The translations under genes were made by a program, and so were the position numbers. Positions 4,060 to 60,116 of a DNA stretch of 62,323 bases are shown here, one piece after another. The stretch is from an uncultured Bacteroidales bacterium. Lineage in GTDB: Bacteria; Bacteroidota; Bacteroidia; Bacteroidales; Muribaculaceae. Location: the NCBI GenBank assembly GCA_902792435.1, contig CADAZN010000009.1:1-62323 (forward strand), in the 5' to 3' direction. A model generated the notes under the pieces. That model did not search any database. It saw only the letters and a program-made list of their open reading frames with translations, and was not told the origin of the DNA. Every line of letters starts with the position of its first letter. Position 1 is the first letter of the stretch.

Positions 4060-4107
4060 CACAAAGCGGCACCTATCGGTGTCGAAAAGCTGGCTTACGC
4101 CAGATTA
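4060..4107 (-). repeat. Paired-hairpin element, copy A
   Basis: Two short inverted repeats sit 8 nt apart: CACC-TATC-GGTG at 4070-4081 and CTGGC-TTAC-GCCAG at 4090-4103. Read on the minus strand the loops are GATA and GTAA (GNNA type). Copies with the same 8-nt spacing lie at 4563-4596, 60430-60463 and 62209-62242. This copy is in the 5' leader of the Sel1-repeat gene. Confidence 0.8.
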
Positions 4108-4440: not shown

Positions 4441-4497
4441 TGCTGCCACCTAGTTATTCCTAGTAGTTCCTAGCCATTCTTATTCCTAAATAAAGTT

Positions 4498-4545
4498 GAT
4501 CGATTCCACCGATTCCACTGATTCCAGTGATTCCAGTGATTCCAT
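4498..4545. repeat. 9-bp tandem repeat, gattccact type
   Basis: About five consecutive units of gattccacc, gattccact and gattccagt with a strict 9-bp period. The third and ninth positions of the unit vary while the GATTCC core is fixed. Confidence 0.85.
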
Positions 4546-4550
4546 GTTCT

Positions 4551-4600
4551 CTCGCAAAGTTGCACCTATTGGTGTCGCAAAGCCTCGCAAGCGAGGAGTT
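4551..4600. repeat. Paired-hairpin element, copy B
   Basis: CACC-TATT-GGTG at 4563-4574, 8 nt, then the perfect inverted repeat CCTCGC-AA-GCGAGG at 4583-4596. The first hairpin and the 8-nt spacer match copies A, C and D. The second hairpin is a different sequence that is still self-complementary. Confidence 0.75.
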
Positions 4601-4698
4601 TTTAATTTCCAGACAGTCCAAAAAACCAGCATCAGTGCAATTTTCCATCAAATTTTCAATAAATTTTAAGCGCAGCGCCCCTCCAGCCTCAAGGCAAA

Positions 4699-4775
4699 CT
4701 GATTCCACTGATTCCACTGATTCCACTGATTCCACTGATTCCACCGATTCCACTGATTCCACCGATTCCACCGAC
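4699..4775. repeat. 9-bp tandem repeat array, gattccact type
   Basis: Eight units of gattccact or gattccacc in perfect 9-bp register, without indels. Arrays of this exactness usually change copy number readily. Confidence 0.9.
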
Positions 4776-5073
4776 AATAAAAATCTTAGCCCGCATCCAA
4801 ATAATTATCAAAATTTTAGAGCCCCAGGCTCAATAATTTCCACTCCGCAGGAGTGGCAAAAGTTGATTCCACCGATTCCATGACTTGTCCTGAAATGAGT
4901 TTACAAAGTAGTAAACAAAAAACAGGATTAAAATGAAGTAGTTTAGTGTTTTTCCAAGTCAATTGTCATTAATAACCAATAGTCGCAAGACTTAGAAGGA
5001 ACAATCAAATGAAAAACCTTCTTTTGTCCTTAATTGTCTTAAAAACTGAGTCAACTGAGTCAGAGATTCCACC

Positions 5074-5193
5074 GATTCCATGCACAGCGACATCTTAGCG
5101 CGCCAGCGCAAAAATAAATATTAGTGCCGTAGGCACCACACTACCAATCTTAGTCCGAAGGACAACAATCTTTAGCGCGCAGCGCGGCCCAAC
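5074..5193 (+). repeat. 120-bp four-hairpin block, copy 1 (inverted partner at 59898-60016)
   Basis: Four short hairpins are spaced about 22-28 bp apart: GCGC-GCCA-GCGC (5098-5109), GTGCC-GTA-GGCAC (5124-5136), GTCC-GAA-GGAC (5153-5163) and GCGC-GCA-GCGC (5175-5185). AT-rich linkers separate them. The whole block recurs as a reverse complement at 59898-60016 with few changes, and in hairpin 3 a T:A pair here is a C:G pair there. The loops are mostly GNA. The block is flanked on both sides by 9-bp repeats in both copies. Confidence 0.85.
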
Positions 5194-5245
5194 TGAGTCA
5201 ACTGAGTCAACTGAGTCAGGCGAAACAGGTGAAACAGGTGAACCA
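5191..5245. repeat. 9-bp tandem repeats, actgagtca and ggtgaaaca types
   Basis: Three units of actgagtca are followed by units of the gaaacaggt type, keeping the 9-bp period while the unit sequence changes. This forms the right border of the mosaic, 28 bp before the end of rlmH. Confidence 0.8.
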
Positions 5246-5272
5246 TCTTAGTCCATAAAGTATTTAATAAAA

Positions 5273-59849: not shown

Positions 59850-59898
59850 CTCATGGAATCGGCTGGTTCAGTTGGTTCGGTTGGTTCAGCTAGTTCGG
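59850..59898. repeat. 9-bp tandem repeats, ggttcagtt type
   Basis: Five units in 9-bp register with changing sequence (gctggttca, gttggttcg, gttggttca, gctagttcg). This is the distal border of mosaic 2. Confidence 0.8.
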
Positions 59899-60016
59899 TT
59901 GGGCCGCGCTTCGCGCTAAATATTACTGCCCTTCGGGCTAAGATTGGTAGTGTGGTGCCTACGGCACTAATATTTATTTTTGCGCTGCGCGCTAAGATGT
60001 CGCTGTGCATGGAATC
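59898..60016 (-). repeat. Four-hairpin block, copy 2 (inverted relative to 5074-5193)
   Basis: The reverse complement of this stretch aligns with 5074-5193 over its full length with few differences. Hairpin 3 reads GCCC-GAA-GGGC here against GTCC-GAA-GGAC there, a paired change; hairpin 4 has loop GAA here against GCA there. Hairpin 1 has lost one loop base. The GTGCC-GTA-GGCAC hairpin is identical. Confidence 0.85.
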
Positions 60017-60116
60017 GATGGAATCGGTGGAATCAGTGGAATCAGTGGAATCAGTGGAATCAGTGGAATCACCTGACTCACCTGGTTCACCTGGTTCACC
60101 TGACTCAGTTTTATCA
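60008..60116. repeat. 9-bp tandem repeat array, ggaatcagt and ggttcacct types
   Basis: About eleven units in strict 9-bp register: tggaatcgg, tggaatcag (several), then ctgactcac, ctggttcac, ctggttcac and ctgactcag. The first half is the reverse complement of the gattccact unit in mosaic 1. Confidence 0.88.

What the first reader, a model, noticed from the sequence alone, without database searches (positions are those of the whole stretch)
5074..5193. Four-hairpin block with paired base changes between two inverted copies
This 120-bp block recurs inverted 55 kb away (59898-60016). It contains four small stems with mostly GNA loops at regular spacing. Hairpin 3 changes from GTCC/GGAC to GCCC/GGGC, keeping the pair, while loops and linkers vary freely. 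Compensatory change with loop constraint points to selection on a folded RNA or single-stranded DNA. It is not a coding repeat and not a known REP layout I can name.
Basis: seen in the sequence. Interest (0 to 1): 0.8.

Follow-up and report, generated by a model that had tools for sequence, protein, structure and literature searches.

The report
Tagged mini-hairpin repeats in rumen bacteria
A short DNA block that can fold into four tiny hairpins belongs to a family of scattered repeats in rumen Bacteroidales, in which hairpin arms change in matched pairs while a lead-in sequence and the loop type stay fixed, as expected if an enzyme recognises the folded single strand.

Summary
In detail: 5074-5193 has an inverted copy at 59898-60016 and forms four stems. 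The genome has ten near-full copies, the other nine 90-98% identical to this one. Among them the paired change is one event, in the window copy only, and not significant (57 of 500 shuffles). But the block belongs to a wider family: tag ending in TTA (mostly TTTTA), 4-5 bp G/C-rich stem, loop GNA or GNNA closed by C-G. With two stem pairs left free, 73 of 79 TTTTA-tagged sites are complementary; no shuffle of 500 reaches the covariation. A GTDB scan put 43 of 47 stretches in Muribaculaceae, Prevotellaceae or unnamed Bacteroidales MAGs. The loops are known extra-stable DNA mini-hairpin motifs, so single-stranded DNA is favoured over RNA. In the genus, 25 of 25 short IS200-like Y1 transposase loci have a hairpin of this loop class within about 300 bp (random windows 74 of 1500). 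Yet none of six Y1 loci found in this genome has a TTA-tagged one. Best reading: a REP/BIME-like element without GTAG or CGTC tag, processed as ssDNA by a Y1 nuclease not yet identified.

The parts
5074..5193 (+). four-hairpin block (module M1)
   Evidence: ten near-full copies in the genome
5095..5109 (+). hairpin 1: TTA tag, GCGC(GCCA)GCGC
   Evidence: loop GCCA/GCA/GTCA/GCTA among copies
5121..5136 (+). hairpin 2: TTA tag, GTGCC(GTA)GGCAC
5150..5163 (+). hairpin 3: TTA tag, GTCC(GAA)GGAC; GCCC/GGGC in the nine other copies
5172..5185 (+). hairpin 4: TTTA tag, GCGC(GCA)GCGC
59898..60016 (-). second, inverted copy of the four-hairpin block
4814..4831 (+). TTTTA-tagged hairpin GAGCC(CCA)GGCTC, same family but loop not GNA
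   Evidence: GAGCC(GNA)GGCTC is common in relatives
4840..4856 (+). hairpin CCACTCC(GCA)GGAGTGG after AATTT, companion of the GAGCC hairpin
   Evidence: a CCACTCC/GGAGTGG companion is seen in relatives
4502..4544 (+). 9-bp tandem array (GATTCCACT type)
4698..4771 (+). 9-bp tandem array
5048..5079 (+). 9-bp tandem units abutting the block on its left
5190..5242 (+). 9-bp tandem arrays abutting the block on its right (GAGTCAACT, GAAACAGGT types)
60010..60107 (-). 9-bp tandem array abutting the inverted copy (hairpin-1 side)
59859..59902 (-). 9-bp tandem array abutting the inverted copy (hairpin-4 side)

Best explanation
The block is a composite of short REP-like elements. Each element is an A/T-rich tag ending in TTA just 5' of a 4-5 bp G/C-rich stem closed by a GNA or GNNA loop. 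Shown: the elements are repeated, mostly intergenic, tag- and loop-conserved, and their stems keep pairing while the letters change. Inferred: the element folds on one strand when the DNA is single-stranded (for example the lagging-strand template), and a Y1 (HUH tyrosine) nuclease of the IS200/RAYT superfamily binds the loop G and the fold, uses the 5' tag as guide, and cuts and rejoins nearby. That copies elements around the genome singly or in composites, so only fold, tag and loop are kept and stems drift in matched pairs. In this species a four-hairpin composite then spread together with 9-bp tandem repeats that join it to other intergenic modules. The partner enzyme for this tag was not found.
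For: Family covariation: 73 of 79 TTTTA + G-N2-C-GNA-G-N2-C sites are complementary and all six exceptions are a single GT (five) or CA (one) pair; 55 of 56 with N3; six scrambled tags give 0-2 sites each. 0 of 500 shuffles reach the covariation score. In 12 aligned G029 copies one pair is AU 6, GC 5 and GU 1. Tag and loop: 126 of 166 TTA-tagged hairpins outside ORF calls have c(GNA)g or c(GNNA)g loops, against 18 of 142 in ORFs; leaving out those that match the pattern used to choose regions, 59 of 99. In G014 the stems differ again (AATGC/GCATT, AAAAC/GTTTT, GGGC/GCCC, GCCC/GGGC) with a similar tag and the same loop class. Clusters with hairpins on both strands: G001 7 of 17, G029 6 of 18; head-to-head in the one read closely (L081). 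Y1 link at the level of loop class: 25 of 25 short Y1 loci have such a hairpin (stem 5 or more) within about 300 bp, against 74 of 1500 random windows of unselected G000 DNA and 142 of 1500 of array-bearing regions; inward on both sides 10 of 25 against 1 and 4 of 1500. TTA-GCCCC(GTA)GGGGC hairpins lie beside two short Y1 genes (L091 in G022, L092 in G024). Precedent: S. maltophilia TnpAREP needs the first G of its 3-nt loop, and Marinomonas REPs have 5-bp stems (PMC8266576, passages).
Against: No partner gene: none of the six Y1 loci found in this genome (L021-L024, L128, L145) has a TTA-tagged hairpin of this loop class within 600 bp; in the genus 3 of 56 Y1 loci examined do (L091, L092, L142). 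tblastn of five Y1 proteins over 75 sequences (1.31 Mb, including the arrays) gave two hits: one about 1.7 kb from a tagged hairpin (L195) and one about 12 kb away (L148). The long Y1 type is at most weakly associated with such hairpins (5 of 31 loci, random 68 of 1500). The tag is not GTAG. No precise element ends, empty site or transposition event was shown. In this species the sense strand is favoured between co-directional ORFs (9 of 11), as an RNA role would also give. The folding energy of the block is not exceptional (z -1.45).
Confidence: 0.55

Rival explanations
1. The hairpins act as RNA: the block is transcribed in 3' or intergenic regions and the folded RNA protects, processes or terminates messages.
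For: In G000, 9 of 11 one-strand arrays between co-directional ORFs lie in sense. Arrays are rarer between divergent genes: 20 convergent to 9 divergent pooled over genomes, against 20 to 34 for gaps of 100 bp or more in a G000 sample (p 0.006). C-G closed GNRA-type loops are also stable in RNA (recalled).
Against: Pooled over genomes, hairpins between co-directional ORFs are 50 sense to 42 antisense. Many arrays have hairpins on both strands. All 15 tagged tetraloops have a pyrimidine third base (GCCA 7, GTCA 4, GTTA 2, GCTA 1, GATA 1), so they are GNNA but not GNRA; several are copies of one block. No Rfam match at gathering score; the only relaxed one is a weak hit outside the block. No T-run follows the hairpins on the tagged strand; the one terminator-like match in the block is on the other strand.
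Confidence: 0.17
2. No recognition at all: paired changes are a by-product of hairpin-templated (quasipalindrome) mutation, and copies spread by recombination between the 9-bp arrays.
For: Copies are joined to varied neighbours through 9-bp arrays. Template switching in short inverted repeats can make matched changes without selection (recalled).
Against: It does not explain why tag and GNA/GNNA loop stay fixed on one strand while stems change, nor the same loop class beside short Y1 genes, nor the family in relatives with no or few 9-bp arrays (0 in G001 and G014, 1 in G029).
Confidence: 0.18
3. Remnants (MITE-like ends) of a particular IS200/IS605 element whose gene has been lost, no longer active.
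For: Short Y1 genes of the genus have hairpins of the same loop class beside them (25 of 25); two have TTA-tagged G-stem hairpins.
Against: IS200/IS605 left- and right-end hairpins lie on one strand (recalled), whereas 10 of 25 of these loci have inward hairpins on both sides; many stem types coexist in one array.
Confidence: 0.1

Closest known systems
REP / BIME / REPIN elements with TnpAREP (RAYT)
   Same: short intergenic hairpin repeats, conserved 5' tag at the stem foot, clusters and some inverted groups, loop G needed in one studied case (PMC8266576, passages)
   Different: tag ends in TTA instead of GTAG/GT[AG]G or CGTC; stems only 4-5 bp and of many sequences in one genome; no partner gene found beside them
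Atypical structures beside TnpAY1 subclass 2.6 of Bacteroidetes (PMC6006769, sections 12-13 and passages seen)
   Same: Bacteroidetes, lacks GT[AG]G, weaker hairpins, copies elsewhere in the genome
   Different: their sequences are in a supplement I could not read, so identity with the present family is untested; the three short Y1 proteins tested here pass the cut-off of IS200 model NF033573 and not that of REP_Tyr_transpos
IS200/IS605 end hairpins and their MITE-like derivatives
   Same: subterminal hairpin with a 5' guide, ssDNA substrate; transposases of this type in the genus have c(GNA)g or c(GNNA)g hairpins beside them
   Different: arrays of many hairpins, often inverted, no cleavage tetranucleotide identified
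d(cGNAg) and d(cGNNAg) DNA mini-hairpins (physical chemistry)
   Same: the loops of the family are these two motifs
   Different: known from oligonucleotides; here used genome-wide in tagged repeats

Membership tests
REP (GTAG or CGTC superfamilies) | multicopy, mainly intergenic hairpin repeats | tested here: met
   83 of 95 clusters outside mechanical ORF calls
REP (GTAG or CGTC superfamilies) | 5' GT[AG]G or CGTC tag at the stem foot | tested here: not met
   tag is (A)TTTTA, TTTA or CTTA
REP (GTAG or CGTC superfamilies) | stem conserved within a family | tested here: not met
   GCGC, GTGC, GCAC, GCCC, GTCC, GAGCC, GCGAC, GTGCC and others coexist
REPtron (TnpAREP gene flanked by its own REPs) | same hairpins beside a Y1 gene | tested here: not met
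   0 of 6 Y1 loci found in G000; 3 of 56 in the genus have a TTA-tagged hairpin within 600 bp, with longer stems (L091, L092, L142)
BIME / REPIN | elements in inverted groups | tested here: met
   clusters on both strands in G001 (7 of 17) and G029 (6 of 18); not in G000 (0 of 21), whose block is one-strand
TnpAREP substrate | ssDNA cleavage by a Y1 nuclease guided by the tag | not testable with these tools
   needs biochemistry
TnpAY1 subclass 2.6 atypical structures | identity with the published structures | not tested
Known structured RNA (Rfam 15) | match above gathering score | tested here: not met
Intrinsic terminator | G/C stem followed by a T-run | tested here: inconclusive
   none on the tagged strand in the block; one match on the - strand, 5138-5122

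The most novel reading that the evidence does not exclude
A class of ssDNA recognition elements defined almost only by shape: an ATTTTA lead-in and two extra-stable DNA mini-hairpin loops, d(cGNAg) and d(cGNNAg), with stem letters free. It is read by a HUH nuclease or another ssDNA-binding protein, and in one species is assembled into intergenic mosaics through 9-bp tandem-repeat hinges that let modules be recombined in varied order.
Probability: 0.22. Interest if true: 0.72.

Novelty: new variant of a known kind. Interest (0 to 1): 0.5.

Why it matters
REP elements are known mostly by the GTAG and CGTC tags; one Bacteroidetes subclass of Y1 proteins has been linked only to 'atypical' structures (PMC6006769). 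A family with a different tag and with stems that covary over several species gives a testable substrate set for that enzyme group, and a natural experiment on what a HUH nuclease reads: fold, loop G and guide, not stem sequence. It would also put extraordinarily stable DNA mini-hairpins, known from oligonucleotide chemistry, under selection in a genome.

Tried and rejected
First hairpin scan masked ORFs of 100 aa in all frames and lost most intergenic DNA; replaced. Weak matches of the block in G022 and G017 (L046, L047) looked on reading like one coding stretch in both and were dropped. The first Y1 flank test (23 of 25 against 173 of 3000) used wrong gene coordinates for L093 and L110, which lie at contig starts; with the coordinates replaces it. 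Long-type Y1 proteins (about 330 aa, L105 group) were considered as partner: 5 of 31 long-type loci have a c(GNA/GNNA)g hairpin within about 300 bp, and one (L142) has a TTA-tagged one, GCGAGCC(GCA)GGCTCGC. Neighbour proteins of arrays were clustered to look for a linked gene: one large group of mainly secreted-looking proteins, no transposase. A covariance model of the block finds arrays in G000 (21), G014 (11), G001 (8) and G010 (1) and none in the other 33 of 37 genomes searched (only 85 candidates a genome were scored, so counts are lower bounds; G029 was not among the 37); built from near-identical copies, it works mainly as a sequence profile. Rfam and terminator scans gave nothing useful. 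Paper searches (open-licence PMC papers only; listings) showed no paper on such repeats in Bacteroidales or Muribaculaceae; subscription papers were not searched.

Selection caveats. Regions were chosen by the pattern, which restricts two stem pairs to Y..R and S..S, so for those sites chance complementarity is 1 in 4, not 1 in 16; GCAC stems (18 of 79 sites) cannot have been selected by it. GAGCC stems in the loci were the query. In one search the outer G-C and inner C-G pairs were fixed by the search, and 17 of the 47 loci were left out as belonging to G001 or G029. Of 32 short Y1 matches, 25 came with a locus and were tested; four of these (L022, L023, L093, L110) lie close to contig ends. 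ORF calls are mechanical and include spurious ORFs over 9-bp arrays. Module names were chosen.

Full report
What is there. Window 5074-5193 forms four small stems, each directly after TTA. The inverted copy is at 59898-60016. The own genome (2.96 Mb, 56 contigs, 93% complete) gives 27 matches, ten near-full; the nine others are 90-98% identical to the window block. As single-stranded DNA the + strand folds into exactly the four hairpins; the - strand does not. As RNA the + strand keeps hairpins 1-3 but pairs the arms of hairpin 4 elsewhere, and the - strand folds differently. The DNA folding energy is not exceptional (15 of 200 shuffles fold as well).

Covariation inside the block. Among ten copies all 170 cells pair, but 16 of 17 pairs never vary; the one covarying pair is hairpin 3 of the window copy (57 of 500 shuffles reach it). 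What does vary is the loop: GCCA, GCA, GTCA and GCTA in hairpin 1, GAA and GCA in hairpins 3 and 4; that is, always GNA or GNNA closed by C-G.

The family. The pattern TTAGYSCGNAGSRC occurs 40 times in G000, 22 in G029, 17 in G001 and 7 in G014, all of one genus, against 0-1 for the reversed pattern in the same four genomes. Of 61 genomes searched 13 have any match; of the other nine, seven have one, G010 two and G058 three. In these relatives the hairpins form arrays with an (A)ATTTTA tag and many stems: GCGC, GTGC, GCAC, GAGCC, GCGAC and others. In G014 three-hairpin units have yet other stems, with GGGC/GCCC and GCCC/GGGC in the third place. With stem letters free, 73 of 79 TTTTA-tagged sites are complementary with two free pairs and 55 of 56 with three; the six exceptions of the first set each have a single GT (five) or CA (one) pair. 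On the 79 aligned sites (63 distinct) 99.6% of cells form a standard pair, 44 cells differ on both sides (shuffle mean 14.6, 0 of 500 reach it), and the score falls when the partner is slid. In twelve aligned G029 copies one pair shows AU 6, GC 5 and GU 1. Selection biases of these sets are stated under Tried and rejected.

Who has it. A scan of the GTDB genome collection with ATTTTAGAGCCGNAGGCTC gave 47 stretches; 43 are in records titled Muribaculaceae, Prevotellaceae or uncultured Bacteroidales (ten MAGs, some titled rumen), the other four in Pseudanabaena, Opitutaceae, Odoribacter and Sphingobacteriales. About 7 chance matches would be expected from base counts (my arithmetic). The scan sees only one stem type and may leave out the window's own genome. 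Contig lengths identify G001 with a water-buffalo rumen Muribaculaceae MAG (JAFZUL) and G029 with CAMHNO. The window's genome itself is unnamed; I take it as a Muribaculaceae relative by kinship only.

Why ssDNA. The loops d(cGNAg) and d(cGNNAg) are known extra-stable DNA loop motifs (Yoshizawa 1997 as cited in PMC6479982, Nakano 2002 as cited in PMC8373063; passages seen, originals not read). All 15 tagged tetraloops have a pyrimidine at the third base, which fits GNNA but not the GNRA rule of RNA (recalled); several are copies of one block. Clusters have hairpins on both strands in G001 (7 of 17) and G029 (6 of 18), never in G000 (0 of 21). Against this: in G000 the sense strand is favoured, 9 of 11, although pooled over genomes it is 50 to 42; and arrays are rarer between divergent genes (20 convergent, 9 divergent; G000 sample gaps 20 and 34). 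Both fit an RNA role as well as replication-strand or promoter avoidance.

Why a Y1 nuclease. All 18 congeneric genomes that I chose have a Y1_Tnp match, 17 of them over the family's cut-off. Of 25 short Y1 loci tested, 25 have a C-G closed GNA/GNNA hairpin (stem 5 or more) within about 300 bp, against 74 of 1500 random windows of unselected G000 DNA and 142 of 1500 of array-bearing regions; inward on both sides in 10 of 25 against 1 and 4 of 1500 (it replaces). The long Y1 type shows little of this (5 of 31; random 68 of 1500). Three short Y1 proteins (L021, L022, L091) score over the cut-off of IS200/IS605 transposase NF033573 and under that of REP_Tyr_transpos. At L091 and L092 a TTA-GCCCC(GTA)GGGGC hairpin lies beside the gene, and at the long-type L142 a TTA-GCGAGCC(GCA)GGCTCGC. 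A published S. maltophilia TnpAREP needs the first G of its 3-nt loop, and a Marinomonas one uses 5-bp stems (PMC8266576, passages). The missing piece is decisive: none of the six Y1 loci found in G000 has a TTA-tagged hairpin within 600 bp, and the nearest Y1 gene to a tagged array in the DNA examined is about 1.7 kb away (L195). A partner may be unassembled, lost, or act from elsewhere.

The setting. In G000 the block is bounded by 9-bp tandem arrays (GATTCCACY, GAACCAACY, GAGTCAACT types). A search with one array finds 41 matches in G000, one each in G029 and G010 and none in the other 15 of 18 genomes. Of 80 array instances (two or more units), 15 could be typed on both sides with my module names; left module 'CAAGGCAAACT' joins four right modules and 'TTGTTTGATAAAACT' three, the hairpin block being one of them in both cases, while 37 were untyped on both sides. 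In G010 the second of these left flanks joins through 9-mers to another module. The arrays therefore look like hinges of an intergenic mosaic. How they arise was not resolved.

Verdict. A real, structure-conserved, lineage-restricted repeat family; REP-like in organisation, not a member of the GTAG or CGTC families as tested; mechanism by a Y1 nuclease likely but unproven.

Noticed in passing
window 4470-5260 and 59859-60107; 41 matches in the genome: 9-bp tandem arrays join a small set of intergenic modules in varied order, like hinges; nearly confined to this species among 18 congeneric genomes.
   Followed up: partly
L021-L023, L089-L102, L106-L113: Short IS200-like Y1 genes across the genus have C-G closed GNA/GNNA hairpins beside them (25 of 25 tested), inward on both sides in 10, with stems that differ between loci.
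   Followed up: partly
L137 (G016:C125): A long-type Y1 gene has at least ten direct repeats of CGGGC(GACA)GCCCG after CCGTCCCGTAATG, four on one side and six on the other.
   Followed up: no
L024 (G000:C8) 1040-2035: A 306-aa Y1 protein is flanked by repeats holding GAACCGTCCC, reminiscent of CGTC-tagged REPs.
   Followed up: no
array neighbours, mainly G001: Genes next to arrays more often end in a dockerin-like motif (my own expression): G001 7 of 29 against 1 of 103 non-adjacent (p 9e-5), G000 2 of 20 against 8 of 417 (p 0.07), G029 0 of 23 against 2 of 118, G014 1 of 8 against 2 of 16.
   Followed up: partly
window 4077-4098, 60458, 62237 (- strand): Another repeated mini-hairpin, CTGGC(GTAA)GCCAG, at 4098 followed by CACC(GATA)GGTG at 4077; also GNNA loops.
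   Followed up: no
G000:C14:62404 and 73940; L097 about 1276: A further family: GCATAAGT then CGYGC(GNA)GCRCG then GYGTGCG, shared by two species.
   Followed up: no
G000:C6 end and C36 end (L022, L023): Two nearly identical Y1 copies each lie at a contig end (33 bases after the match), so the assembly seems to break at this repeated element.
   Followed up: no
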